This document shows, one piece after another, positions 2,371 through 16,885 of a stretch of 33,913 nt of DNA; within the stretch, counting starts at the first letter, position 1, and each line of letters starts with the position of its first letter. This DNA comes from Halorubrum sp. CSM-61 (GTDB lineage: Archaea > Halobacteriota > Halobacteria > Halobacteriales > Haloferacaceae). The translations under genes were made by a program, and so were the position numbers. The notes under the pieces are model-generated. The model saw only the letters and a program-made list of their open reading frames with translations, made no database searches and was not told where the DNA came from. The stretch spans positions 18,381 to 52,293 of the forward strand of contig NZ_RJJW01000005.1 of NCBI RefSeq assembly GCF_003781945.1, read 5' to 3'.

Positions 2371-2663
2371 GATGCAATCTCACACGGGGCCGTCTGTAAC
2401 TAGTCCTAAGATATTCATCTAAGATATGTGTCTAAGATTTCAATCTCACGAGGGCTCGTCTGAAACCGAGCGACTTCGGCGACCCCTGATAGTCGCCGTC
2501 GCTTCAACCCCACAAGGGTTCGTCTGAAACGGCGGAGTCGCGTCGCCCAAATCGCATCCGGGGGTGAGCTTCAACCCCACAAGGGTTCGTCTGAAACGTC
2601 CTCGGTGTGCATGATGGCGTGCTTCTGCGCCATGCTTCAACCCCACAAGGGTTCGTCTGAAAC
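2371..2663 (-). CRISPR. Short CRISPR array: 3 intact and 2 altered repeats, 4 spacers
   Basis: The 30-nt repeat, read on the minus strand, begins GTTTCAGACGAACCC and ends GTTGAAGC. Exact copies lie at 2634-2663, 2568-2597 and 2501-2530. Altered copies lie at 2437-2466 (6 differences, all transitions) and 2371-2400 (8 differences). Spacers are 2598-2633 (36 nt), 2531-2567 (37), 2467-2500 (34) and 2401-2436 (36). Unit spacing is 64-67 bp throughout, so the altered copies sit in register with the array. The leader is on the cas2 side, so altered repeats are at the old end. The array is read in the same direction as the cas operon. See the findings on the last unit, which may be more than decay. 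Confidence 0.95.
2408..2446. repeat. Three tandem 13-bp units of the form AAGAT...TCT
   Basis: AAGATATTCATCT (2408-2420), AAGATATGTGTCT (2421-2433) and AAGATTTCAATCT (2434-2446) follow each other without gaps. They run from the last pseudo-spacer into the altered repeat at 2437. Each unit is close to a dyad of the form AGAT-N4-ATCT. Such order is unusual in a spacer taken from foreign DNA. They could be binding sites or part of a terminator-like region; chance in AT-rich DNA is possible. Confidence 0.5.
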
Positions 2664-2760
2664 CATGGCAGATTCGAACGCCACAAGAGCTATACTGGCT
2701 ACATACACACAAGCGTTTCCGTCGACCCGCAATAACCCCCGATCCCCCCTGGGGTCGATG
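2664..2760 (-). promoter_or_regulatory. Leader of the short CRISPR array
   Basis: On the minus strand this 97-nt segment lines up without a gap with the segment before the first repeat of the large array at 12531-12627, about 70% identical by hand count. The best-conserved cores are GGTCGAC followed by one variable base and GAAACGCTTGTGTGT, then TGTGGCG nearer the repeat. A GC-rich near-palindrome (CCCC-N-GGGGGG) lies at the far end of both. Leaders of this kind hold the precursor promoter and the signals for Cas1-Cas2 integration. Here only 17 bp separate the leader from the cas2 stop codon. Confidence 0.85.
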
Positions 2761-2777
2761 GTCGCTGTCTGTGCTGA

Positions 2778-3038
2778 TTAGAGAAATCGCCTGTCTTCGG
2801 TAGGGTCGTCGCCGTAGACCGTTCGATCGAGGAGCGTCTCTGACGAAAGCTCGTAAATTATCACACTCTCACCGGTTATCAGGAGGTCGTCGATAGAATT
2901 TTCGAGCTTTGAGAGATCACCCTCAGTGATGTGCCCTTCGAGCACCGAGTTCTGTACGTGGGTGAGATAGCGTCGGCAGAGTTTCAACATTCGTTGAGTT
3001 CGTTCCGCCTCCATATCGTAGACCAACACGACGTACAT
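2778..3038 (-). CDS. cas2: Cas2, CRISPR adaptation protein
   Basis: Cas2 is the dimeric ferredoxin-fold subunit that holds two Cas1 dimers during spacer integration. The 86-residue protein begins MYVVLVYDMEAERTQRMLKLCRRYL; the Asp in VYDME is the conserved Cas2 residue on the first strand. It continues HVQNSVLEGHITEGDLSKLE and ESVIIYELSS, and ends TVYGDDPTEDRRFL, all typical of type I-B Cas2. I chose the ATG at 3038 because it overlaps the cas1 stop by one base (TGATG); a GTG three codons earlier (3047) is an alternative. It is the last gene of the operon and is followed at once by the short array's leader. Confidence 0.96.
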   Translation of the reverse strand: MYVVLVYDMEAERTQRMLKLCRRYLTHVQNSVLEGHITEGDLSKLENSIDDLLITGESVIIYELSSETLLDRTVYGDDPTEDRRFL

Positions 3039-4030
3039 CACCACCACCTCCGAAACGCTTCATACGGCTCGTCGGCGAGAAGGTGCTTTTTGAGCTTATA
3101 AGCCTCCAATCGCAGAAGGTACTGATAGCTCACCTTCCGATCGAGCCGGGGATGATCGACCGTCTCCTCCAGGGTTTTCTCGAACTCCCTGGTGTACGTT
3201 TTGCGACCGGATTCGGAGAGCAGACAGGCTCCGACCTCGGAGCGGAAGTCCGATTCGGAGAGCTGTTGGCGGTTGAACAGCCGGAACATCACGCGGTCCG
3301 CGATCACCGGCTTGAACAGATCGGCGATGTCGAGCGAGAGCGAATAGCGCCGCTCTCCGGGCTCGTGGAGATAGCTCACGGAGGGATCGAGTGCGGTGGC
3401 GCGGATCGCCGAGACGCAGTTGGCGTACACCAGTGAGTTACCGAACGAGACGACGCTGTTCACCTCGTCGGTCGGTGGGTCGAATCGCCGCCCCGTGAAC
3501 GGGTACTTATCCGGGAGAATCGTCGAGAAAGTTCCGTAGTACGCCTTCCGAGCGGTTGCTTCGACGCCCATTAGCTCGGACACATCGTCGGTGTCGCCCA
3601 CACGCCCGGCCGCGTCCTCGAGGGCGTCGAGCGCTTGTCGAAGGTCCCGTCCGCGGTTGTGGTAGTACGAGACGTTCGACCGCATGTTGTGAATGCTTCC
3701 GGCGACGAACTCACGAGCGATCCGGAGCCGATGGTCGCTGTCCTCGTAGGCGGAAACCTGCGCGACGACCGTCCGGCCGGACGTTTGGCCTTTTTCCGGC
3801 ATGACGGAACCGGCGTAGTAGTCCTTCCAACCGAACACGTGGGCGGCGACTCCCTCGTCGTTGAGGAACGAAACGAAGCGCGTGTTGAAGTCGATCTGTC
3901 CGTGGAGGTACACGGCCTCCGCGTGCTCGATTGGAATGTGCTTTTTATCGCCGTCGTCGGTGACGACGCGGAGCGTGTCGTCTCGTCGTTCTATCTGTCC
4001 GTCGGAAAACACGTGGTAGTTCTTATCCAT
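3038..4030 (-). CDS. cas1: Cas1, CRISPR integrase
   Basis: Cas1 is the metal-dependent integrase that joins new spacers at the leader-repeat junction. The protein has 330 residues, a normal length. The N-terminal beta-domain begins MDKNYHVFSDGQIERRDDTL. Likely metal ligands are E157 in GVEATARKAYYG, H222 in YLHEPGERRYSL and an acidic residue in SLDIADLFKP (D237, where many Cas1 proteins have Glu). The open frame extends upstream into cas4, but the ATG at 4030 gives the family N-terminus and lies just after the cas4 stop. No damage is visible, so the adaptation gene looks functional. Confidence 0.97.
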   Translation of the reverse strand: MDKNYHVFSDGQIERRDDTLRVVTDDGDKKHIPIEHAEAVYLHGQIDFNTRFVSFLNDEGVAAHVFGWKDYYAGSVMPEKGQTSGRTVVAQVSAYEDSDHRLRIAREFVAGSIHNMRSNVSYYHNRGRDLRQALDALEDAAGRVGDTDDVSELMGVEATARKAYYGTFSTILPDKYPFTGRRFDPPTDEVNSVVSFGNSLVYANCVSAIRATALDPSVSYLHEPGERRYSLSLDIADLFKPVIADRVMFRLFNRQQLSESDFRSEVGACLLSESGRKTYTREFEKTLEETVDHPRLDRKVSYQYLLRLEAYKLKKHLLADEPYEAFRRWW

Positions 4031-4032
4031 TG

Positions 4033-4644
4033 TCAACACCAGCAAAAGTCGTGATACGCACACGACGAGCAGAACGGCTTTTCGGCGGCTTCGGGCGGCG
4101 TGTCGCTCGTGACGACGCGGTGGATTCCGCGGATCGCGTCTTCCACCTTTTGGCGACGCTCGTCGTCGAGTTCGACCGGTTCGCGCGTTCGTTCGGTCGG
4201 GTGAACGAGCACGCCGTCGCGCTCGACATCCGCGAACTCCTCGAGATACCACAAGTAGTACGACAGCTGCATCGTCGCCGGTTCCACCAGCGACGAGGAG
4301 GGCTTGATCTCAACGACGCGCCCGTCCTGCAGGAGATCGAGCGACACCATCCCGAGCGAGAGGTTCTCTCGTTCCTCCTCGTAGGCCGTGTCGTCGACGC
4401 GCGTGCCGCGTACCACGGAGGGATTCTCCCGGTCGATCTCCAAATGCCGGCTGGCGAACCACAGTTCGCGCTTACAGACGACGTAATACTGCATCATCAC
4501 ACCCGTCACGCGGAAGGGGTCGTCGTCGCGCTCCCCGGCGACGGTCTCTCGAAGACGGTCGACGGGGTCCATTCTATCGAAGTCACCTCCAGCAGCGTCG
4601 GATTTTCCACCACCACTTCCACCGGTCCCGTTTGTCGGAGTCAT
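4033..4644 (-). CDS. cas4: Cas4, RecB-like nuclease of CRISPR adaptation
   Basis: Cas4 trims prespacers and helps select PAM and orientation. This 203-residue protein has C57 near the N-terminus and a C-terminal cluster C192, C195, C201 and C203 (CSSCAYHDFCWC), consistent with the family's iron-sulfur cluster. The PD-(D/E)xK core is visible as D103 in SLDLLQDG, E112-I-K114 in VVEIKPSSS, and Q126 with the following Tyr pair in QLSYYLWYL. The first 20 residues are a Gly/Ser-rich extension. Its ATG overlaps the cas3 stop (ATGA), and its stop lies 2 bp before the cas1 ATG, so the three are probably translationally coupled. Confidence 0.95.
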   Translation of the reverse strand: MTPTNGTGGSGGGKSDAAGGDFDRMDPVDRLRETVAGERDDDPFRVTGVMMQYYVVCKRELWFASRHLEIDRENPSVVRGTRVDDTAYEEERENLSLGMVSLDLLQDGRVVEIKPSSSLVEPATMQLSYYLWYLEEFADVERDGVLVHPTERTREPVELDDERRQKVEDAIRGIHRVVTSDTPPEAAEKPFCSSCAYHDFCWC

Positions 4645-7322
4645 AGGAGTCGTGCCTCCACAGAATTGTCTGGCGTGACGACCCCCTCGGTAGCGTCGAA
4701 GTAATCGTCGAACCGAGCCTGCCGGGTGTCAATGTGCAGGCGGCCATCCTCGTCGTGGGGATGGCCGTCCTCGCCGTAGACTGGCTCGCAGTGAGCGAAC
4801 AGTTCCTCCTCGTCGCGTCCGTACATCGGAACGGAGACTTGCAGCGGTTTCAGTAGCTCCGTCTTCTCTTCGACCGTTTCCCAATCGTATTCACGGTAGG
4901 CGTCTCGGAGCTCGTCGATGTGGGCTCTCTCCTCGCACGTTCGTGTGACAATAACTTCGACCGCCGGCCGTTCGTCGATCAGCGAGAGGCGCCCGAGCAT
5001 CTTGGCGTCCGCTCTCTGGATGTAGTTAAGATACTCCGGATCCCCGACTCCGCGCTCGTCGATTTTCGCGAAGTAGGACTTCACTGCAGTCCGTGTGACG
5101 GTGTGTTCGTCCATTGGCTCCCCCTCGTACACCTCGTCGAGTGCGAGCGCGGAGAGCTTCGTCAGACTGTCACCGCCGCGGTCGTACACGGCCGTCGAAG
5201 GCGTTCGCTCCCTTCCTTCCGGTGGTTCGAGAACCCAAGTTGTCACGAGACCCGTCTCGCGGTCGAACGACCGGTTGCATCGGCCCGCCGCTTGGACGAT
5301 GCTGTCGAGCGGGGCAAAGTCCCGGAACACGCGGTCGAAGCTCACATCGACGCCCGCCTCGACGAGCTGCGTCGAGACGAAGACGATCGGTAGGTTCCGC
5401 TCCGTCAGCTCGATGACGACGTCGATGAGGTGCTGACGATCCACTGGCCGGTGTCGAGTTGTGAGGTGAACGAGAAGCGGCCGGTTACCACCCCATTCAT
5501 TGAGCGTTCGCTTAACTGTCGTTTCGGGCGATACGTCGGCGGGTTTCTCAGTCACGTTCGCGAGCACGCAGTCGTACACTTCGTTGACCACGAGCGGATC
5601 GGCGTACTGCTCGACCGACTGAGTCAGTTCGCGCGCACTATCGATGGTGTTGCAGATCGAGAGGACGGACACCCCCTCGACTGCGACTTCGGCCAGCTGC
5701 TGGCCGGCACGGTCGTAATCGAGCGGTACCGGATCGCCGTCGAGTGCAGCCTCCACGGACGGGTGGAGCTCGAAGTGGACGCGATCGAGTCCCTCGTAGT
5801 ATCGTTCAGGGTCGGGAACGAGATCCGGCGTCTCGTCGTTCTCGCTTTCGGTAAACAGCTTCGGCTGGGTGGCCGTCATGGCGATTACCGTCACATTGTA
5901 CTCCTCGACGAGGAGGCGCGCAAGTCGCTCGACGAGCGCCCACCACCGGTGAGGAAGCGCCTGCGGTTCGTCGAGTACCACGACGCTATCGTAGAGGGAC
6001 GGCAGCTTCATCGACTGAACGTTTCCCGGTCCCGCGAGACTCTCGAACAGTTGCACGAACGTCGTCACGACCATCCCCGACCGCCAGCTCTCACCGAGAA
6101 TCGCCTCCGCATCGGCTCGGGCGTCGTCGGGCACTTCCTCGGGCGATCTAGGGAGCGGTACGCGCGTCTCCGAGAGGTGGTGGTCGACGGTCAACACGTC
6201 GCTGTCGACACGATCGACGTCGAATACGGACTCGCTTTCCGCAGCCACCTGGTCGATGATCGACGTGAACGGGAGCGCATACACGAGTCGTCCGTCTCCC
6301 GATTTCCGGTCGAGAACGGTCAGTCCGGCGTCGAGTCCGGTGAGTGTCTTCCCAAGCCCTGTCGGCAGCGTGAGCGTTGCGACTGAGTCGCCCGCTTCTG
6401 CGAAATCCTCCGCTCGTGAACGAACTTCTCCCCGCGCCTGTTCCCGTTTCTCGTTAAGCGAGCGGGTTCGGTCGTCGACGCCCGAGTGCTCGGTCTCCCG
6501 CTGGAGCGCCCTCACTTTCGCGTCGATCGCAGCTCGTCTCGGCGGGGACGCTCCGTACACCTCCTTCGACGGGAGGTCCACCACATTCGTCAAATGGCGG
6601 GCACTCGTCTTGTCTGCGAGTACGAGCGCGCTCCAAGTCTGGAGAACTCCGTCGTAGAACTCCTCATTCAGCTTCCACTGCGCCTCGAAGACGAGGTCGG
6701 GGGAGCTGAGCACGTGACCGCCGATATCGGTGAAGCGTTTTTGCTCGCGAGCGCAGCGCATCCAGTCACGGAACTCCTTCCACGATCCCTCACCGCCTGT
6801 CGCACGGTCGATCAGGGCGTTGGCGACGGCTGGCTCGTTCGCGTCGATGTTTGCGACCTGCTCGAAGGTCTCTTGACGAAACAGTCGGCGGAGTGGTCCC
6901 TCGTCGCGCTCGGCGGCTGCCTTGCCAACGTAGTTGGCCGTGTTCGGGAGTTGGCCATGGTGTCTCGCGACCGCGAGAAAGCCGACCAGCGGGTCGTCAT
7001 CCTCGAACCCGGCGGCGTCGAGCACGTAGTACGCCACGAGTGCACCGAGCGGCGCGTGGTGGGAGGGTCCGCCGAGATCGAGATCGTCAGCGTCGGCGTG
7101 GAGGTGCTCTTGGAACCACGTCGTGAGCTTTCCGATGTCGTGAACCCATGCGATACGTCGGGCGATGTCGACGACTGCGCTGCCGTCTGCGGTCGTCGCT
7201 CCCTCCGGAACGATCGCCTCGATCCGCTCTACGACGTCTGCGAGGTGTCCGTCCAGCGGCACGTCGGTACCGTCGCGTTCGCGAAGGTGCGACGGTGGTG
7301 CGTCGACATCGAGTCCGTTCAA
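4641..7322 (-). CDS. cas3: Cas3, HD nuclease-helicase
   Basis: Cas3 is recruited by Cascade to an R-loop and degrades the target strand while translocating. The 893-residue protein has both halves. The HD nuclease shows H26, H61-D62 (VHDIGK), H88-H89, H121-H122 (ARHHGQ) and D237 (LADKTSA). The SF2 helicase shows Walker A LPTGLGKT at 319-326, motif II DEPQ at 451-454, motif III MTATQ at about 482-486, and QAAGRCNR (motif VI). The start looks like TTG at 7322, whose last two bases lie in the cas5 stop (TTGA). It retains an N-terminal SH pair at residues 11-12, as in the Cas3 family. A GTG at 7262 is an alternative start. No catalytic residue appears lost. Confidence 0.96.
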   Translation of the reverse strand: MNGLDVDAPPSHLRERDGTDVPLDGHLADVVERIEAIVPEGATTADGSAVVDIARRIAWVHDIGKLTTWFQEHLHADADDLDLGGPSHHAPLGALVAYYVLDAAGFEDDDPLVGFLAVARHHGQLPNTANYVGKAAAERDEGPLRRLFRQETFEQVANIDANEPAVANALIDRATGGEGSWKEFRDWMRCAREQKRFTDIGGHVLSSPDLVFEAQWKLNEEFYDGVLQTWSALVLADKTSARHLTNVVDLPSKEVYGASPPRRAAIDAKVRALQRETEHSGVDDRTRSLNEKREQARGEVRSRAEDFAEAGDSVATLTLPTGLGKTLTGLDAGLTVLDRKSGDGRLVYALPFTSIIDQVAAESESVFDVDRVDSDVLTVDHHLSETRVPLPRSPEEVPDDARADAEAILGESWRSGMVVTTFVQLFESLAGPGNVQSMKLPSLYDSVVVLDEPQALPHRWWALVERLARLLVEEYNVTVIAMTATQPKLFTESENDETPDLVPDPERYYEGLDRVHFELHPSVEAALDGDPVPLDYDRAGQQLAEVAVEGVSVLSICNTIDSARELTQSVEQYADPLVVNEVYDCVLANVTEKPADVSPETTVKRTLNEWGGNRPLLVHLTTRHRPVDRQHLIDVVIELTERNLPIVFVSTQLVEAGVDVSFDRVFRDFAPLDSIVQAAGRCNRSFDRETGLVTTWVLEPPEGRERTPSTAVYDRGGDSLTKLSALALDEVYEGEPMDEHTVTRTAVKSYFAKIDERGVGDPEYLNYIQRADAKMLGRLSLIDERPAVEVIVTRTCEERAHIDELRDAYREYDWETVEEKTELLKPLQVSVPMYGRDEEELFAHCEPVYGEDGHPHDEDGRLHIDTRQARFDDYFDATEGVVTPDNSVEARLL

Positions 7323-8116
7323 CTGAACATCACCCGCCGTCCGTCCACGCGCGATGTCTCGACGTTGTGGACGCGAACCGGTTCCGCGTCCGGTGAGTAA
7401 GCCACCGACAGGAACTTCGTCGTCGTTCGTCCGCCGTCGTCGGCCGCCATGAATCCCGGCGATCGCTCGACACGAACGGGGTTCCCGGGTGCGAGTTCGA
7501 CATCGTCGACCGCCTCGATGACGACCGAGTCAACGTCCGCGTCCGCGACCTCTCCTGATTCAACATCGAACGCCCCGAGATACTCCACCTCGGCGAGATG
7601 TTCTGAGAGGCCGAGGCTCGGCGGGTAGTGGCTCGTTCCCTCCTCTAGACGGTTCCGAAGCTCCTCAAACAGCTCCGTATCGTCGAGTTGAAGGTCTATT
7701 CGGTAGGCCGGGTCGACGAGTACCTCGTAGTTGTGCTGCTGGCGTAATTCGGTCGAGTCCGGCATCGAGATACGGGCGTGCCCCCGCGTCGGAACCGTTT
7801 TCATGTCCTCCTTCGCCGTCGAGAGCGTGTTCTGTGGAAGGTTCATCGTCCGCAGTTCCTCGATCGGTTCGACTGCGATTCCGGAGCATTTGGGAGCGAA
7901 CGCGTCGTAGTAGCTGTCCCTATCGAGCCCGAGGATCGCGGCGATTATCCCCGCAATCGTTGTCCGTGGCGGAATCCGATACGTCTGTTTGACGATGTTT
8001 CCCTCGACCCGCCGAAAGTGTCCCCACTGGCCACGGAGTTCGAAGGAGAGACACTCCGCCGACTCGGAGCCGGAGTCGTCGTCGCCGTCCCAGTCGTCGA
8101 GCGAGTGCTGGGTCAT
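7319..8116 (-). CDS. cas5: Cas5, Cascade subunit (type I-B)
   Basis: Cas5 is the RAMP-fold subunit that grips the 5' handle of the crRNA and sits next to Cas8b and the end of the Cas7 backbone. The 265-residue protein has an acidic leader of about 20 residues, then the family core CLSFELRGQWGHFRRVEGN and TYRIPPRTTIAGIIAAILGLDRD. A C-terminal region includes VEYLGAFDVESG. In type I-B, crRNA cutting is done by Cas6 rather than Cas5. The ATG at 8116 shares one base with the cas7 stop (TGATG). The length and motifs suggest an intact gene. Confidence 0.94.
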   Translation of the reverse strand: MTQHSLDDWDGDDDSGSESAECLSFELRGQWGHFRRVEGNIVKQTYRIPPRTTIAGIIAAILGLDRDSYYDAFAPKCSGIAVEPIEELRTMNLPQNTLSTAKEDMKTVPTRGHARISMPDSTELRQQHNYEVLVDPAYRIDLQLDDTELFEELRNRLEEGTSHYPPSLGLSEHLAEVEYLGAFDVESGEVADADVDSVVIEAVDDVELAPGNPVRVERSPGFMAADDGGRTTTKFLSVAYSPDAEPVRVHNVETSRVDGRRVMFS

Positions 8117-9246
8117 CAGTCGTCCGCGCTCGGCATCGTCTCGGCGGCCTCGTCGTACACGTCGACCACGTCGACTGCGTCGTCGCCGACCGCGTCACGA
8201 AGCGCGTCGTGGAGTCCGTGGTCGCCCACCTCGGCGCCGGCAGTGAGGTTCTCGCCGTCGACGGTCACGTCCAGCACGTCGCTCGTCGCGACGCGAACGC
8301 GCTCGATGCGGTCGGCGTGACGGCCGAGTCGACCAACGAGATCCGTCAGATCGACCGCGAGATCCCGAACGTTCCTGATCTCGTCGACCGGCTCCGACGC
8401 CGACTCGTCGACGGAGAGATCGCGGGTGAGTCCGCCGATGTGGAACCCCTCGTCGGCGTACTCGACGCGGAGGTAGAGACGCGGCTCCTGTCCCACCTTG
8501 CTCCGGCTGATCGTCTGGTTCTTGATCGCCCGCCAGCAGAGGGTGTCGAGACGCTCGACGTCCGCGGGCGTCAGCTTCGTATCGTCCGAGCCGTGCTCAT
8601 CGACCAGTCCGTGAAACGCGATGAAGCCGTACTGGATCCGATGGTCGTCGAGGTCGAATCCCCCCTGCTCCTTGTCGGCACCGGTCGCGATGACGCTCGT
8701 CAGGCTGTTGTACTCCTCGTTCTCGGTGACCGAATGGATCGTTTTCCCCGGCGAGAACTGCACGGGCCCCGTGAAGTGGTCCGGGAGGTAGTCCTCGAAT
8801 CCCTCGTAGTTTCCTTGCATGTCCATACTCATCGTCGCCCCGAAGTATCGCACGTCGGCGGCGTCGTCGAGGAAGGCACCGAACACCTCTTCGCGCAGCT
8901 TCGCCTGTTCCTCCTCGTCGAGATCTCCCAAGTCCCACTCGTCAGGATCGAGAGATTTGAGGCAGTTCTCCAGAAGCTCCCATCGCTGGGCCTGGCTGCC
9001 CCCGTCTCCCTTGACGTTCCGAACGTACACGCCGTGGCCGTCGGCGTCGAGCTGGTCACGCAGGTAGCGTTTCAGCCGAACGTCCGTGACGATAGCCTGT
9101 TCAGTCCGAGGGTCGATTCGAGGGCGGTTCGCCCCGCTTAGGGGGTTCCCGTTCGGGTTCGCGTCGACCGCGTCGTAACAGAAAACGATCTCCGAACGGT
9201 TCTCCACGGGCTCGTACTCGTCGTCGGCGTAGGCGTGTTCACTCAT
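8116..9246 (-). CDS. cas7: Cas7, Cascade backbone (Csh2 family)
   Basis: Multiple Cas7 copies polymerise along the crRNA spacer to form the Cascade backbone. The 376-residue protein carries the Csh2-type N-terminus EIVFCYDAVDANPNGNPLSG at about residues 19-38 and a conserved RLKRYLRDQL helix. It also has RYFGATMSMDMQGNYEGF, which leads into GPVQFSPGKTIHSV, and HRIQYGFIAFHGLV. The C-terminal 80 residues are very acidic, consistent with salt adaptation. The cas8b stop falls inside its first codons (ATGAGTGA), an 8-nt overlap. The next gene, cas5, overlaps by one base, fitting coupled production of Cascade subunits. Confidence 0.95.
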   Translation of the reverse strand: MSEHAYADDEYEPVENRSEIVFCYDAVDANPNGNPLSGANRPRIDPRTEQAIVTDVRLKRYLRDQLDADGHGVYVRNVKGDGGSQAQRWELLENCLKSLDPDEWDLGDLDEEEQAKLREEVFGAFLDDAADVRYFGATMSMDMQGNYEGFEDYLPDHFTGPVQFSPGKTIHSVTENEEYNSLTSVIATGADKEQGGFDLDDHRIQYGFIAFHGLVDEHGSDDTKLTPADVERLDTLCWRAIKNQTISRSKVGQEPRLYLRVEYADEGFHIGGLTRDLSVDESASEPVDEIRNVRDLAVDLTDLVGRLGRHADRIERVRVATSDVLDVTVDGENLTAGAEVGDHGLHDALRDAVGDDAVDVVDVYDEAAETMPSADD

Positions 9247-9856
9247 CGGTGTCGGGGGTTGCGTCGTCGTCAGTCTGTTCGTCGGCCTCCTCGTCCGGGA
9301 TCCAATTATTCATGCCGTAGGCGACGCCGAGCGCGTAGTAGTAGCGCAGCTCGCTCGTGTCGATGTCCCAGCCGCCGTCACGCTCTGCACGAGGGAGCGT
9401 CTCGACGAGTTCGTCGACGACCTCGGCGTACATCGTCGAACTCATCCGGTTCTCGCGCGAGTAGACGACGTTTTTGTCGAGAACGTCGCTTGCGAGCCGC
9501 TCGATCTTCGAGCCGGTGACGGACTTGATCGAGTACTGGTCGACGAGCGTCGTCGACCGGTTCTCCGAGGACTGCTGATAGCTAGAGACCTGCCCGACGA
9601 GGACGCCGAGCAGGAACCCCCCGCGTCGCTGCGGGTTCTCGGGTGCAAGCGCCGGCGTGTCGTCGAGGAACTGTTCGAGTTTCCGTGCGCGTTTGACGGC
9701 CTTCGATCCGCCGTCGGTTCGAGCGCGCTGTGTCGTGTCGTGTTGCATCTGGGATGTCGCGTACTCCGCCGGTTTCGTCAGCGATTCGTCCTCGCCCGCC
9801 AGCAGACCTGCCGCCGCGAACGCACACAGCTGTGCGTGTTGCATCGCGACGAACAT
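9239..9856 (-). other. Possible internally initiated Cas11-like small subunit within cas8b
   Basis: Some type I systems make a small subunit (Cas11) from an internal start inside cas8. Here the in-frame ATG at 9856 (cas8b M513) has GAGGGG 9 nt upstream, a plausible ribosome-binding site, and would give 205 residues covering the helical C-terminal domain. ATGs at 9844 and 9748 (M517, M549; 201 and 169 residues) are alternatives with poorer upstream sequence. The sequence alone does not show that any of them is used. Confidence 0.3.
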
Positions 9857-11392
9857 GGACGGGAACCCCTCGTCGTCCTCGTCGCTCTCTTGGACCAGCC
9901 GGTCGGCGTACTCTTCGAGCAGGCGGGCGACGGGAATCGATCCTCCCGAAAGCGACGCGACCAGTGCCTGAATGCGGAGATCGTCCGCGGACACCGTGTC
10001 GTCGTCGTCCGGCGTCGCGAACGTCGACCGGAAGTAGTTACCGCCGGCGATCGAGCCGACCATCGCCTTCACGTCCGGACGCAGCAACGACCACTCCTCG
10101 TGTGCGGGGAGTGCCGGTCGGACATCCGGATGCGGGAGGTCTGCCTCGGCGTCGAACGCCCAGCTGGACAGGACCGCACAGTGCTCGCGAGCGAGTTCGA
10201 CCGGGTACATCAGCGAGGCGTTCATCTCGTCGCCGAACACGTCGTACCGCTTGGTCTGGTGCTGGAGCACGGCGGCGACGTAGAACTGGAGCCGATCCGC
10301 GTTCGAGATCCTGCTGTCATCGTGGGTGTATTTACTGTACATCCGCTCAACGGGGGTTAAATCACCCTCGTTGACCACCCTATACAGGGCAGTGTACAGC
10401 TTCCGCGCGTCCGTGGGCGTCGGCCGCCCGAAGAAGTACGGGAGGTAGTAGACGTTCGACTCCAGCGTGTAGTACGAACAGGCGTCGATGAACGTCGAGG
10501 CGTTCATCAGCGTGACGGCGACATCCTCCGAGACGGGATGTGACCGCCACGCCTCGTCCGGATCGAGGCCAGGAAACTTCTCCAGCTGCTTGCCGAGGAA
10601 GTAGTTCAGCGGGTCCTCGGCGGTTCCGACGGTCGGGCCGTCACGCCCCGTGACGAGGTCCGTCGCTTGACCGATGGAGTTCGTTGCCGCGTTCTTCGAG
10701 ACGAGCTTCGAGCGCTTGCGAGCGCGCATCGCCTCGTTGAACACCGTGGTCCCGCAAGACCCAGGGAGTTCGTAGTTGCCGTCTGAGTCGAGCTTGACCG
10801 CGACGGTTGTCAAGGCTGTCGTTGACCCCTCAATCTGCTTGTTCACGGCGTCGAGGATCGTCTCTTCGACGCCATCTCGCTCGCCGAGTGCCGCGAGCGA
10901 TTCGACGATCCATCCGTCCTCGTGCTCGCTGGCGGCCTCTTGGATCACTTCGTCGGCCGCCCAGTAGGTAAGCCGCTGATACAAGTATTCGGCCACCTTC
11001 TCTGGCTCCTTACCGGCACCAGTACGATGCGTGACGCTGTGGTCGAATCCCCGTGCGGCATCGTACCACGCGTGTGCGACCGCTTCCACGTCCTCCCGCG
11101 TGTAGCTCCGGAACTCGACCGGGCGGTCCGGGTCGAGTGCCGGTTCGTCGCCCGTGAGGTCGACGCGGAGGATCGCCAGGCTCTCCTGCTCCCCGAACAG
11201 GTCCGTCGACTTCTCCGGCGTGAGGTACGGCGCGAACTCGCCGCCGCCGGCGGTCGCGAGCGTGTAGAGCCGGCCGTAGAGATACTGGAGATCACGCAGC
11301 GAGGCGATCGGGCGGTCGGGGAGTTCTTCGGCGAGCTCCTCGTCGTCACTGTATGTCTCCTTGAACTCACCAGGGGTCGGAAGGAGACTCAT
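9239..11392 (-). CDS. cas8b: Cas8b, Cascade large subunit (Csh1 family)
   Basis: Cas8b recognises the PAM and stabilises target binding in type I-B Cascade. The 717-residue protein begins MSLLPTPGEFKETYSDDEEL. It has the Csh1-like order: an N-terminal region with YLTPEKSTDLFGEQ, a central SNVYYLPYFFGRPTPTDARKLY, and a helical C-terminus with RRGGFLLGVLVGQVSSYQQ and YYYALGVAYGMNNWIPD. The last feature matches the C-terminal small-subunit-like domain of Cas8b. Possible internal starts at M513, M517 or M549 could give a separate Cas11-like protein (see findings). The stop overlaps cas7, and the ATG overlaps the cas6 stop (ATGA). Assignment rests on position, length and motif resemblance. Confidence 0.93.
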   Translation of the reverse strand: MSLLPTPGEFKETYSDDEELAEELPDRPIASLRDLQYLYGRLYTLATAGGGEFAPYLTPEKSTDLFGEQESLAILRVDLTGDEPALDPDRPVEFRSYTREDVEAVAHAWYDAARGFDHSVTHRTGAGKEPEKVAEYLYQRLTYWAADEVIQEAASEHEDGWIVESLAALGERDGVEETILDAVNKQIEGSTTALTTVAVKLDSDGNYELPGSCGTTVFNEAMRARKRSKLVSKNAATNSIGQATDLVTGRDGPTVGTAEDPLNYFLGKQLEKFPGLDPDEAWRSHPVSEDVAVTLMNASTFIDACSYYTLESNVYYLPYFFGRPTPTDARKLYTALYRVVNEGDLTPVERMYSKYTHDDSRISNADRLQFYVAAVLQHQTKRYDVFGDEMNASLMYPVELAREHCAVLSSWAFDAEADLPHPDVRPALPAHEEWSLLRPDVKAMVGSIAGGNYFRSTFATPDDDDTVSADDLRIQALVASLSGGSIPVARLLEEYADRLVQESDEDDEGFPSMFVAMQHAQLCAFAAAGLLAGEDESLTKPAEYATSQMQHDTTQRARTDGGSKAVKRARKLEQFLDDTPALAPENPQRRGGFLLGVLVGQVSSYQQSSENRSTTLVDQYSIKSVTGSKIERLASDVLDKNVVYSRENRMSSTMYAEVVDELVETLPRAERDGGWDIDTSELRYYYALGVAYGMNNWIPDEEADEQTDDDATPDTDE

Positions 11393-12201
11393 CCGCCGTG
11401 TACCTCCGAAGCCGGCTCGCCGAATGGGCCCTGTTTCTCAGCGACGTTCAGGAAGCCGAGTCCGAGCCCGTTCCGCTCTCCGAGCCCGCACGAGAGCGCG
11501 AGGTTGAGGTGACGGCGGTGGTGGTCGTCGCGAACCGTGTACTGGAGTCGCCACTTGCTGAGGACGTACGTCATCGTCTGTCCCTGCGTCACCTCGACCG
11601 GTACCGCGAACGTCTTGATCAACTCGTAGCCGTCGAAGAGCTCTCCGGGCCGATCGCTGGGACCCGGAAGGTGGTCGGGTGCGTGTCGCCCGTGTTTGGC
11701 ATCGAGGTTGGACTCGATCTGCGTTCGGATCGGCTCCATGCCGAACTCCGGTTGCCAGAACGTCGCCGTGTCACCGCCGGGGTGGTCGATACCGTACTCC
11801 TCACACCGCCACGGCGGAATTCGAACGAGGAGTCCGGTCCCGCTCTCGAGGACGCCGGTGCTCCCGGGCTCGCCGACGTCGGGCTCGATCACCGAGAGAT
11901 CGTCGACCGTGAAGGGCATCTCGCCCACGTTCAGCTCGGGCGTTCGCTGGAGGTCCCGAGCCACGTGCGCGAGGAGTTCCTCGTCCGGCGAGGCGACGAG
12001 CAGCGTCCGATCGTCCCCCTCCGCCATGTCACCGGGAGGGAAAGGGTTCGAGAACGTGAAGCCCGGCGGCTCGTTCGCGTCGTGAGCGTCCTCGTACTCC
12101 GTTCCCTCGAGCGCCCGCCACACCCGTCCGCGGAGCTTGTGGTGGTACGCGTTATCGTAGGCCGCGTCAGCTCGCGCTGAGAGACGGACTACGACGCGCA
12201 T
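11389..12201 (-). CDS. cas6: Cas6, CRISPR RNA endoribonuclease
   Basis: Cas6 cuts each repeat of the precursor RNA, leaving an 8-nt 5' handle, here GTTGAAGC for intact repeats. The 270-residue protein begins MRVVVRLSARADAAYDNAYHH, the typical haloarchaeal Cas6 start. H20/H21 in the AYHHKLRG segment are candidates for the catalytic His. The C-terminal Gly-rich loop of the RAMP fold is GLGERNGLGLGFLNV at 239-253. I chose the ATG at 12201 because it begins the family motif; a TTG three codons earlier (12210) is possible. It is the first gene of the cas operon, transcribed away from the large array. Confidence 0.95.
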   Translation of the reverse strand: MRVVVRLSARADAAYDNAYHHKLRGRVWRALEGTEYEDAHDANEPPGFTFSNPFPPGDMAEGDDRTLLVASPDEELLAHVARDLQRTPELNVGEMPFTVDDLSVIEPDVGEPGSTGVLESGTGLLVRIPPWRCEEYGIDHPGGDTATFWQPEFGMEPIRTQIESNLDAKHGRHAPDHLPGPSDRPGELFDGYELIKTFAVPVEVTQGQTMTYVLSKWRLQYTVRDDHHRRHLNLALSCGLGERNGLGLGFLNVAEKQGPFGEPASEVHGG

Positions 12202-12530
12202 TTGAAACAAGTCGTCAATAGATTATGTTGTTGCAGTAGCATTTCATTCCGATTCGAGATAGTCAGGAAACCTGATAAAAATTTCCCAACTAGTATCATA
12301 TTCCCGTGTAGTTCTCTCGAAGCTCCAACCACGCTCACAGACCAGAGTGTCACAACCTCGCTCCGGGCTACCGAGTATGTTTAGGCGGGATACCCGGATA
12401 CTTCGGAACCGTGGTGTGCACCGGTGATCCGAGGTAATCTCTGCAACTGGAGACGACACGGTGTCATTGACAGTAGACGCAAAACCGTCTCAATCGTCAG
12501 CGATCGGTATCCCGAAACCCTCCGAAGTGT
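12202..12530. promoter_or_regulatory. Divergent control region between cas6 and the large array leader
   Basis: There is no convincing gene in this 329-bp stretch. The half next to cas6 is AT-rich and should hold the cas promoter. The half next to the leader holds two inverted repeats. CGGGATACC at 12386-12394 pairs with GGTATCCCG at 12506-12514, and ACTTCGGA at 12400-12407 pairs with TCCGAAGT at 12521-12528. The arms are about 110 bp apart. A minus-strand frame (12244-12459) has a Cys/Trp-containing end but no support as a gene. The short array has no counterpart of this region because cas2 lies there. Confidence 0.55.
12221..12228 (-). promoter_or_regulatory. Possible TATA element of the cas operon
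   Basis: On the minus strand CATAATC lies about 20-26 nt before the cas6 ATG at 12201, close to the position expected for a leaderless transcript. A second AT-rich TTTTTATC (minus strand, about 12274-12281) could instead serve a transcript with a leader of about 50 nt. The sequence does not settle which is used. Confidence 0.35.
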
Positions 12531-12627: not shown

Positions 12628-15600
12628 GTTTCAGACGAACCCTTGTGGGGTTGAAGCCCGTGAATCTGCTCGCCGGAGGCGTTGAAAAACTGGTTTCAGA
12701 CGAACCCTTGTGGGGTTGAAGCGCCTCACCGCCGATGCCGAGTACGGATGGACCGCGGTTTCAGACGAACCCTTGTGGGGTTGAAGCGGGGTGTTGTGTC
12801 CGTGAATCGGTTGGTGAACGTGCGTTTCAGACGAACCCTTGTGGGGTTGAAGCCGAGACGCGCACGCCACCGAGATGTTTCAGGGCCGGTTTCAGACGAA
12901 CCCTTGTGGGGTTGAAGCAGCTCCATCTCCGCGACCATCGACATGAACTTGAGTTTCAGACGAACCCTTGTGGGGTTGAAGCAGCTCCATCTCCGCGACC
13001 ATCGACATGAACTTGAGTTTCAGACGAACCCTTGTGGGGTTGAAGCCTCGGAGAGGTGCGCGATCTCCCCGCCGCGCATCCCGTTTCAGACGAACCCTTG
13101 TGGGGTTGAAGCAATATCGTCGGTCTCCCACTCGTCGTCGATACCATGTTTCAGACGAACCCTTGTGGGGTTGAAGCGCCGCGAAGGGTGACGGTGTCGG
13201 TGCCGACGTTGTTTCAGACGAACCCTTGTGGGGTTGAAGCGACGTGGACAAAGTCCGGGAGTCCTGCGAGAAACAGTTTCAGACGAACCCTTGTGGGGTT
13301 GAAGCGCCCTCCCCAGCAGTGCCTGCCGGAAGTTCTGCGGTTTCAGACGAACCCTTGTGGGGTTGAAGCGCGGGCTGCGCGCAGCCCGATCAGCGCGACG
13401 ACCGGTTTCAGACGAACCCTTGTGGGGTTGAAGCCTCCACGCGCACGAGATCGTCGTCGACGTACCACTGTTTCAGACGAACCCTTGTGGGGTTGAAGCA
13501 TGTCGTAGAACATCACGCCGTCGCCGAGCTGGTCGTTTCAGACGAACCCTTGTGGGGTTGAAGCAATATCGAGGTTCGTCTCGGCACCCGGATCGGCGAG
13601 TTTCAGACGAACCCTTGTGGGGTTGAAGCCGGAACTCGCGTTCCACCTCATCGAGGAGGCCGCGTTTCAGACGAACCCTTGTGGGGTTGAAGCAGGGCCG
13701 GACGCACGAACCCCACGCGGCGGCGGCGCGTTTCAGACGAACCCTTGTGGGGTTGAAGCGACCACTCGCCGGCCGTCTGGTTGTACTCGAACGTGGTTTC
13801 AGACGAACCCTTGTGGGGTTGAAGCGGCGACCGGCCGCTGGTCTGCCTGACCGACCAGTACGTTTCAGACGAACCCTTGTGGGGTTGAAGCGACTACTAC
13901 CTCCGCGGGGAGGATGTCGACGTTGGTTTCAGACGAACCCTTGTGGGGTTGAAGCGGCGACCTCGTCGTACTGCATCCCGCGCTCGCACGGTTTCAGACG
14001 AACCCTTGTGGGGTTGAAGCTCCGAAAGCGCCGAACAGCGGTACTACATCGAGGTGTTTCAGACGAACCCTTGTGGGGTTGAAGCCCGCACTCGTCGCAC
14101 AGATGGGGCTGAGCCTCCCGTTTCAGACGAACCCTTGTGGGGTTGAAGCAGTTCGTCACGGGTGACGGTCGCGCTTCCGTCGCTGTTTCAGACGAACCCT
14201 TGTGGGGTTGAAGCGGAGTCGCCACCGTCGTCACCATCTTCGCCGTCGTTTCAGACGAACCCTTGTGGGGTTGAAGCCTCGTCGAGAACCTCGCTCCGGA
14301 CAACGGTGATGGGTTTCAGACGAACCCTTGTGGGGTTGAAGCGAGCTCCACGGCGCCGATCAGCCCCAGGAGGAGGCGGTTTCAGACGAACCCTTGTGGG
14401 GTTGAAGCCGCGGCTAGCGGGTCGTCCCGTGACCGCATGGCGGTTTCAGACGAACCCTTGTGGGGTTGAAGCTTTCACGGCTCGCCCTCCTGCTCGACGA
14501 TCACGAGTTTCAGACGAACCCTTGTGGGGTTGAAGCCCCGAGGTGTCCGCATGAGCGACCCCGACACCCCGAGTTTCAGACGAACCCTTGTGGGGTTGAA
14601 GCATCGAGAGCATGGACCTGCCGACCATCCAAAACGACAGTTTCAGACGAACCCTTGTGGGGTTGAAGCGTGGCCCCGTCGCGTCTCGAACGAGGACGCC
14701 GCAGGTTTCAGACGAACCCTTGTGGGGTTGAAGCGGGTGGGTGGGGTGGGTAGTCAAAAAGCGATACGCGTTTCAGACGAACCCTTGTGGGGTTGAAGCC
14801 GTTATAACACACGGAATGTCTACCGAAAAATCTTGTTTCAGACGAACCCTTGTGGGGTTGAAGCACCGTGCCCGACGACGGGACGGCGGTGTTCGTCGCT
14901 TTCAGACGAACCCTTGTGGGGTTGAAGCTTGCCGCCGCCCAGGTTCGCCCCGTCGAGCGTCTCCTTTCAGACGAACCCTTGTGGGGTTGAAGCGCCCGGC
15001 GCGCGGACATGGAACACCCGATCAACCGCTTTCAGACGAACCCTTGTGGGGTTGAAGCATCCCGATGATGCTGCTGACGCCGATCGTCCGGGTCTTTCAG
15101 ACGAACCCTTGTGGGGTTGAAGCGACATCGAGGACGAGGAGGTCGGCCTCTCCGACGCCTTTCAGACGAACCCTTGTGGGGTTGAAGCGGCGGTGTTCGT
15201 GCTGATGAACGTGAGCGCGAAGCTTTCAGACGAACCCTTGTGGGGTTGAAGCGTGGAGCGACACCTGGCGGTCAAGGTCGCTGTAGGCTTTCAGACGAAC
15301 CCTTGTGGGGTTGAAGCGGTGTCGACGACCGCCCACGGGTCGGAGTACCCCGCTTTCAGACGAACCCTTGTGGGGTTGAAGCAAGGAGAAGTACTTCCAG
15401 GAGCGCGGGTCGAACGTCTTTCAGACGAACCCTTGTGGGGTTGAAGCGACGTCGAGGACTACCTCGAATCGTCGAAGTACGCAGTTTCAGACGAACCCTT
15501 GTGGGGTTGAAGCCTCGTGTTCGTCATGTCGATCCGAGCCGTCGCCCGAGTTTCAGACGAACCCTTGTGGGGTTGAAGCACGGCGTCAATCACCCAAACG

Positions 15601-16885
15601 GGCGTGCAAGAGGTGTTTCAGACGAACCCTTGTGGGGTTGAAGCTCCTCTACGTAGACCTCTACGGTCTCGCCGTCCTCGGGTTTCAGACGAACCCTTGT
15701 GGGGTTGAAGCCCGCCGGATGCCCCGGTGAACAGGGGCCGGCGGAGTTTCAGACGAACCCTTGTGGGGTTGAAGCCATCCGCGGGAGCGTGGTGTTGTAC
15801 AGTACGTCTGTTTCAGACGAACCCTTGTGGGGTTGAAGCTCGGAGCCGACCGAGTAGACGACGCCGCCGGTGACGGTTTCAGACGAACCCTTGTGGGGTT
15901 GAAGCGACCACCTCGAACTCGCTCTCGAAGAGCGAGCGGTGGTTTCAGACGAACCCTTGTGGGGTTGAAGCCCCGTCTCGGTGGTCACGGTCATCGAGAT
16001 CTCTCCGTTTCAGACGAACCCTTGTGGGGTTGAAGCGCCCTCCTCCACCGTCGTCTCGGTGGTCGGGTCGGTTTCAGACGAACCCTTGTGGGGTTGAAGC
16101 CACGACGACAGCCGTCGCTGTCGCACTCGCAACGGTGTTTCAGACGAACCCTTGTGGGGTTGAAGCCGCAGCGCAGCGCGGAACGTCTGCTCGGAGGAAC
16201 GCGTTTCAGACGAACCCTTGTGGGGTTGAAGCAACCCCCGGTCGAAGACCGCGAACGACGTCACCGCGTTTCAGACGAACCCTTGTGGGGTTGAAGCGCG
16301 GGACCACGACCTTGACGTAGTAGAGCGGAAGTTTCAGACGAACCCTTGTGGGGTTGAAGCAAGATCGAACTAGACGACGAGGAGGACGGCGAGGAGTTTC
16401 AGACGAACCCTTGTGGGGTTGAAGCGACGAGGTCGTCGCGACGATCGTCGTTGCCCTCCGCGTTTCAGACGAACCCTTGTGGGGTTGAAGCACGTCGCGC
16501 TCGGGCGTCGGGATCACACTCGCGCACCGTTTCAGACGAACCCTTGTGGGGTTGAAGCGACAATGAGTAAGAGATTAAACGAGCTAAAGGCGAAGTTTCA
16601 GACGAACCCTTGTGGGGTTGAAGCCCTCCAGTACTCGACGACGTGGCTCGCGTGCTCTGGTTTCAGACGAACCCTTGTGGGGTTGAAGCTAAGGTTCCGT
16701 CGGATCACAGGACATCGAGGGCGCGTTTCAGACGAACCCTTGTGGGGTTGAAGCTCGGTCGGGATGACGTACTTCATCGCCCGTGCCGCGTTTCAGACGA
16801 ACCCTTGTGGGATTGAAGCGGCCACTCAATGGCTTGGACGGTTTCGTAGTAGATGCTTTCAGACGAACCCTTATCAGATGGAATC
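12628..16885 (+). CRISPR. Large CRISPR array: 66 repeats, 65 spacers
   Basis: By hand count there are 66 copies of a 30-nt repeat, starting at 12628, 12693, 12758 and so on to 16856. Spacers are 33-37 nt. Most copies look identical; they begin GTTTCAGACGAACCC and end TGTGGGGTTGAAGC. Nine consecutive copies, starting at 14899 through 15418, have C instead of G at position 1. The copy at 16790 has A at position 23. The last copy (16856-16885) matches only over about its first 17 bases, which marks the old end. Spacers at 12919-12952 and 12983-13016 are identical. The orientation places the leader next to the cas genes, with transcription away from them. Confidence 0.99.

What the first reader, a model, noticed from the sequence alone, without database searches (positions are those of the whole stretch)
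2371..2466. Altered repeat pair flanking an AT-rich pseudo-spacer: array decay or a CreA-like crRNA mimic?
Seen: read on the minus strand, the copy at 2437-2466 ends ATTGAAAT, still a good type I-B handle. Two of its changes improve the repeat hairpin: a G-T wobble becomes G-C, and an A-C mismatch becomes G-C, giving ACGAG-CC-CTCGT. The copy at 2371-2400 also keeps a short stem (ACGG-CC-CCGT). Both copies share the same bases at two positions that differ from all intact repeats. Simple neutral decay would not be expected to strengthen the stem. Known: haloarchaeal CreTA modules use a degenerate-repeat crRNA mimic (CreA) that directs Cascade to repress a toxin RNA. Inferred: this unit could be such a mimic. 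I found no convincing match of the pseudo-spacer 5' end to a nearby promoter, so old array decay remains the simpler explanation.
Basis: partly seen in the sequence, partly recalled or inferred. Interest (0 to 1): 0.6.

Follow-up and report, generated by a model that had tools for sequence, protein, structure and literature searches.

The report
Old tail of a CRISPR array
This is the worn, oldest end of an ordinary archaeal CRISPR array, holding a spacer that resembles repeated sites in front of a plasmid partition gene; no evidence was found that it is a guide RNA that silences a toxin.

Summary
The two altered repeats are real and at the stated places, but they are the leader-distal end of an ordinary five-repeat type I-B array next to cas2 in a Halorubrum genome. 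Such worn terminal repeats are the rule: 12 of 17 assessable related arrays end in a repeat with at least two changes. Half of the changes in the copy at 2437-2466, including the stem-strengthening T-to-C, are standard or trailing repeat states in congeners. The second 'strengthening' change would close a 2-nt loop and adds no stability. The two bases shared by both copies also occur together in the last repeat of the other array in the window. The AT-rich pseudo-spacer is explained. Its 13-nt period and CTTAGA core match iterons upstream of a family of haloarchaeal plasmid parA genes, including one on the host's own contig C16. It is therefore most likely an old spacer taken from a plasmid partition site. 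The seed with a TTC PAM has no target in the host genome with 0 or 1 mismatch. The unit has no TATA box of its own and is not conserved in 52 congeneric genomes. The CreA-like reading is not supported. Ordinary, with a tidy explanation; low interest.

The parts
2664..2777 (-). leader of the small array, between cas2 and the first repeat
   Evidence: local alignment to the leader of the big array over 93 nt next to the first repeat, same distance
2634..2663 (-). intact repeat 1 (leader-proximal)
2568..2597 (-). intact repeat 2
2501..2530 (-). intact repeat 3
2467..2500 (-). 34-nt GC-rich spacer before the altered pair; no TATA box
2437..2466 (-). altered repeat 4: A12G, T17C, G21A, G23A, G29A, C30T against the local consensus
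2401..2436 (-). AT-rich 36-nt spacer CTTAGACACATATCTTAGATGAATATCTTAGGACTA, three CTTAG cores 13 nt apart, resembling parA-upstream iterons
2371..2400 (-). altered repeat 5, leader-distal end of the array (8 changes; handle ATTGCATC)
2778..12210 (-). type I-B cas operon: cas6, cas8b (TM1802 family), cas7, cas5, cas3, cas4, cas1, cas2
12628..16885 (+). second, 66-repeat array with the same repeat; its last repeat (16856-16885) is also degenerate and carries A21 and A23

Best explanation
The unit is the leader-distal, oldest end of a small but genuine type I-B CRISPR array (leader, three intact repeats, two worn repeats) in a Halorubrum genome. The worn repeats carry a mixture of older repeat states (C17, A21, A23), which are standard or trailing states in relatives, and private neutral changes. 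Such repeats persist because diverged terminal repeats recombine poorly with the rest of the array. The AT-rich stretch between them is an ordinary spacer, taken long ago from the 13-nt-period iteron region upstream of a haloarchaeal plasmid parA gene, probably the partition/operator site. Shown: array layout, related leader, repeat states in relatives, resemblance to parA iterons above all controls, and absence of a CreA-type target. Inferred: that the spacer came from such a plasmid (the exact protospacer was not found), and that the worn repeats now give little or no mature crRNA.
For: In-register spacing of 64-67 nt with three intact repeats, and a leader related to that of the big array. 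The last repeat of the other array in the window is worn too, with the same A21 and A23. 12 of 17 assessable related arrays end in a repeat with at least 2 changes, and several show two or three worn repeats in a row (G024, G043, G053); the last repeats of G040 and G024 also end in AAAT. C17 is the canonical state in G024, G032, G063 and others, and C17 with A21 in G030. Spacer: a blind search of 293 haloarchaeal genomes with CTTAGANACATATCTTA at up to 1 mismatch gave four places other than the array itself. Three lie directly upstream of parA genes: own C16, G215 and G292. All 18 parA loci at 73% identity or more that were tested match the spacer above shuffles: in 14 of them no shuffle of 300 reached the match, and in the other four 1 to 12 did; distant parA genes (53% or less) mostly match at shuffle level. 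Core spacing in 48 parA regions peaks sharply at 13 nt. Among 69 spacers this one matches parA regions best (26 of 33; next 22; shuffled copies at most 22). Worn terminal repeats are described as usual in PMC8047081.
Against: No perfect protospacer was found: the best full-length match is 28 of 36, and exact scans of viral contigs and genome contigs found nothing. No iteron site with a TTC PAM and a full seed match was found. A gapped similarity of the spacer to the array's own distal flank (2295-2314) is not explained.
Confidence: 0.9

Rival explanations
1. CreA-like antitoxin: the worn-repeat unit makes a crRNA mimic that guides Cascade to repress a nearby toxin RNA.
For: Two diverged repeats flank a non-standard spacer near a type I-B cas operon, as in published creA genes (PMC8501985); the handle ATTGAAAT is fairly well kept.
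Against: No TTC plus seed target with 0 or 1 mismatch in the genome and none in the window. No local TTC plus seed pair with a repeat-like handle in the intergenic regions, apart from the array repeats themselves. No own promoter visible. Not conserved in the genus. The spacer has another source.
Confidence: 0.02
2. A retained self-directed guide: the spacer's partial match to the iterons of the resident C16 parA region lets Cascade bind there without cutting and tune partition or copy number of that plasmid, the worn repeats making the unit stable.
For: The C16 iterons match at 25 of 36, with one seed mismatch in the best two sites. Diverged repeats stabilise units against recombination (PMC9458426).
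Against: The sites have TAT instead of the TTC PAM seen at the HRTV-4 and HRTV-28 protospacers, and each has a seed mismatch. The spacer matches other parA loci better (28 of 36) than the host's own (25 of 36).
Confidence: 0.03
3. The pair is not part of the array but a chance or ectopic repeat pair.
For: 6 and 8 changes against the consensus.
Against: Exact array spacing, orientation and position at the distal end; worn repeats of the same kind end related arrays.
Confidence: 0.02
4. The spacer came from another AT-rich element (virus or chromosome) and only resembles parA iterons by low complexity.
For: No exact protospacer known.
Against: Shuffled copies of equal composition reach at most 22 of 33 against 26 of 33, and a blind pattern search found parA upstream regions in three of four places.
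Confidence: 0.05

Closest known systems
Degenerate terminal (leader-distal) repeats of CRISPR arrays
   Same: Position at the trailer end, changes concentrated in the last one or two repeats, spacing kept, 3' end altered (PMC8047081).
   Different: Nothing of substance; two worn repeats in a row rather than one, as also in G024, G043 and G053.
CreA of haloarchaeal CreTA modules (Halobacterium hubeiense, Haloarcula hispanica)
   Same: Two diverged repeats around a spacer-like stretch beside a type I-B cas operon.
   Different: No seed target with PAM, no visible promoter, no CreT candidate found, inside an array; the two repeats share 22 of 30 bases, against 11 to 19 of 30 in published haloarchaeal creA genes (PMC8501985).
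Iterons upstream of haloarchaeal plasmid parA genes
   Same: 13-nt period, CTTAGA/TCTAAG core, high AT content.
   Different: The unit is a 36-nt spacer inside a CRISPR array, not beside a parA gene.

Membership tests
Leader-distal end of a type I-B CRISPR array | in register with intact repeats, at the end opposite the leader | tested here: met
   spacing 66, 64, 67, 66 nt; leader at the cas2 side, related to that of the big array
Leader-distal end of a type I-B CRISPR array | terminal repeats degenerate in related arrays too | tested here: met
   12 of 17 assessable related arrays, plus the big array of the window
Leader-distal end of a type I-B CRISPR array | spacer from a mobile element | tested here: inconclusive
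   resembles parA-upstream iterons of haloarchaeal plasmids well above controls; exact protospacer not found
CreA (CreTA) | seed (1-5, 7-11) matches a promoter of a neighbouring toxin next to a TTC PAM | tested here: not met
   no 0- or 1-mismatch site in the genome; 12 at 2 mismatches against 30 for the reversed control
CreA (CreTA) | own promoter, outside an array | tested here: not met
   preceded by a GC-rich spacer without a TATA box, inside an array (read by eye, no archaeal promoter model available)
CreA (CreTA) | two divergent repeats with kept handles | tested here: inconclusive
   two divergent repeats, handles ATTGAAAT and ATTGCATC; this also fits ordinary worn repeats
CreA (CreTA) | Cas6-processed small RNA and Cascade-dependent repression | not testable with these tools
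   needs RNA sequencing and genetics
CreA (CreTA) | linked CreT toxin | not tested
   no candidate seen; without a target promoter there was no anchor for a search

The most novel reading that the evidence does not exclude
A retained old spacer between recombination-proof worn repeats makes a crRNA whose partial match to parA iterons guides Cascade to bind, not cut, the partition site of a resident megaplasmid.
Probability: 0.03. Interest if true: 0.6.

Novelty: already known. Interest (0 to 1): 0.15.

Why it matters
It removes a plausible CreTA candidate. It also shows two pitfalls for such searches: a 'stem-improving' change can be an older repeat state that is standard in relatives, and a low-complexity 'pseudo-spacer' can be a normal spacer from an iteron array. 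The by-product, a widespread 13-nt iteron family upstream of one clade of haloarchaeal plasmid parA genes, is a good candidate for the partition site of these plasmids and could be tested directly.

Tried and rejected
A CreA target in the window and genome: none. Local handle-plus-seed pairs around the intergenic regions: only the array repeats themselves. Protospacer by blastn in phages and plasmids: chance-level hits only, in unrelated phages and a clostridial plasmid. Exact scans of viral contigs and genome contigs: nothing. Conservation of the distal end in 52 congeners: only canonical repeats and two short chance matches. The stem argument was tested by folding and random mutation: from the local consensus, 1 to 2.4% of mutants reach the same local stem energy, but from a C17 or C17+A21 ancestor 9 to 17% do, and the congener canonical repeat already has it. 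No paper describing iterons upstream of haloarchaeal parA genes was seen in the one search made for it.

Full report
What is there. The window carries a complete type I-B cas operon on the minus strand, cas6 to cas2, between two CRISPR arrays with the same 30-nt repeat GTTTCAGACGAACCCTTGTGGGGTTGAAGC. The big array (12628-16885, + strand) has 66 repeats; the small one (2663 down to 2371, - strand) has three intact and two altered repeats. The own genome has no other close copies of the repeat. The small array has a leader related to that of the big array over 93 nt at the same distance from the first repeat. The pair in question therefore lies at the leader-distal end.

The repeats. The changes described are real. 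However, T17C, the change that turns a G-T pair into G-C, is the canonical base in congeners G024, G032 and G063 and in the G009/G033/G023/G031 group; G030 has C17 and A21 as standard; A23 occurs in the penultimate repeat of G063 and in the penultimate repeat of the window's own big array; the last repeat of that big array has A21 and A23 together. So three of six changes in 2437-2466 are older or allelic repeat states. The remaining changes are A12G, G29A and C30T. A12G would close a loop of two bases and changes the computed stem energy by nothing (-2.6 with and without it, and -2.6 in the congener canonical repeat); an A12G change is also seen in the last repeat of G028. An ending in AAAT is also seen in the last repeats of G040 and G024. 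Overall folding is weaker than canonical, and about 55% of random mutants fold as well. In 2371-2400 the normal stem is broken.

Worn last repeats are the norm. In 17 assessable arrays of relatives (the G053a and G049 arrays were left out because they run close to a contig end, and implausible 13-mismatch extensions were ignored), 12 end in a repeat with at least two changes, and several have two or three changed repeats in a row. A review describes this as usual and as possibly stabilising against recombination (PMC8047081).

The pseudo-spacer. Read on the minus strand it is CTTAGACACATAT-CTTAGATGAATAT-CTTAGGACTA, with three CTTAG cores 13 nt apart. A search of the own genome found its 18-nt start with two mismatches at contig C16, directly upstream of a ParA gene. 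That region holds further CTTAGA/TCTAAG units. A blind pattern search of 293 haloarchaeal genomes found four places besides the array; three are directly upstream of parA genes (own C16, G215, G292). The number of places (5 in all) is no more than for the reversed control pattern; what is telling is where they lie. Collecting parA loci by protein, all 18 tested loci at 73% identity or more match the spacer above shuffles: in 14 of them no shuffle of 300 reached the match, in the other four 1, 7, 11 and 12 did. Seventeen of the 18 hold exact CTTAGA/TCTAAG cores; L074 has only diverged ones. Distant parA genes, with other iterons, mostly match at shuffle level. Core spacing over 48 parA upstream regions peaks at 13 nt (86 cases; next 26 nt with 18). 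Against these regions the pseudo-spacer scores 26 of 33, the other 68 spacers of both arrays at most 22, and composition-matched shuffles at most 22. The best full-length match is 28 of 36. The source is therefore most likely the upstream region of a plasmid parA gene; the exact protospacer is not in the collections searched. The two clearest virus protospacers of the big array (HRTV-4 and HRTV-28) carry a TTC PAM; none of the parA sites listed with at most one seed mismatch does.

CreA test. The published defining features are a seed of positions 1-5 and 7-11 matching next to TTC at the toxin promoter, and Cas6-processed diverged repeats (PMC8501985). The exact seed pattern TTC-CTTAG-N-CACAT has no site with 0 or 1 mismatch in the own genome and fewer 2-mismatch sites than the reversed control (12 against 30). 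No local handle-plus-seed pair exists near the cas operon apart from the repeats. The unit has no visible promoter of its own and is not conserved in 52 congeneric genomes. The two repeats share 22 of 30 bases, more than the 11 to 19 reported for haloarchaeal creA genes. The unit should not be filed as CreA.

How it works. Most likely it no longer does much: it is an old spacer whose flanking repeats have drifted, kept because diverged terminal repeats are hard to delete by recombination. If Cas6 still cuts the first altered repeat, a crRNA against a plasmid partition site would result; that is ordinary immunity, not regulation. A regulatory role on the resident C16 plasmid is not excluded but unlikely (TAT instead of TTC, seed mismatch). 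That C16 is a plasmid is itself an inference from its ParA gene.

Left open. A gapped similarity between the spacer and the distal flank at 2295-2314 (score reached by 3 of 2000 shuffles of the flank, but by 20 of 1000 shuffles of the spacer) does not include the seed and is unexplained.

Noticed in passing
L068, L069, L071, L073, L076, L081, L096, L134, L142, L148 and others, about 260 bases upstream of parA: A family of 13-nt-period iterons with core CTTAGA/TCTAAG upstream of one clade of haloarchaeal plasmid parA genes; candidate partition site or operator. Other parA clades have different iterons.
   Followed up: partly
2295-2314: Gapped similarity of the distal flank to the pseudo-spacer (AGATATCATCTACAGATAT against AGATATTCATCTAAGATAT); unexplained, seed not included.
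   Followed up: partly
12919-12952 and 12983-13016: The same spacer stands twice in a row in the big array (duplication).
   Followed up: no
14899-15447: Nine consecutive repeats of the big array share the same first-base change (C instead of G), a block from one variant repeat; the same first-base change occurs in G032.
   Followed up: no
15580-15614 and 16492-16528: Spacers of the big array match haloviruses HRTV-4 (4 mismatches) and HRTV-28 (5 mismatches), both with a TTC PAM.
   Followed up: yes
L066 around 1440-1560: A cluster of the same iterons in G246 without this ParA within the fetched 3 kb.
   Followed up: partly
126-179: Two near-identical 20-nt copies of TCGATCACTTATAAACARCC 34 bases apart, not examined.
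   Followed up: no
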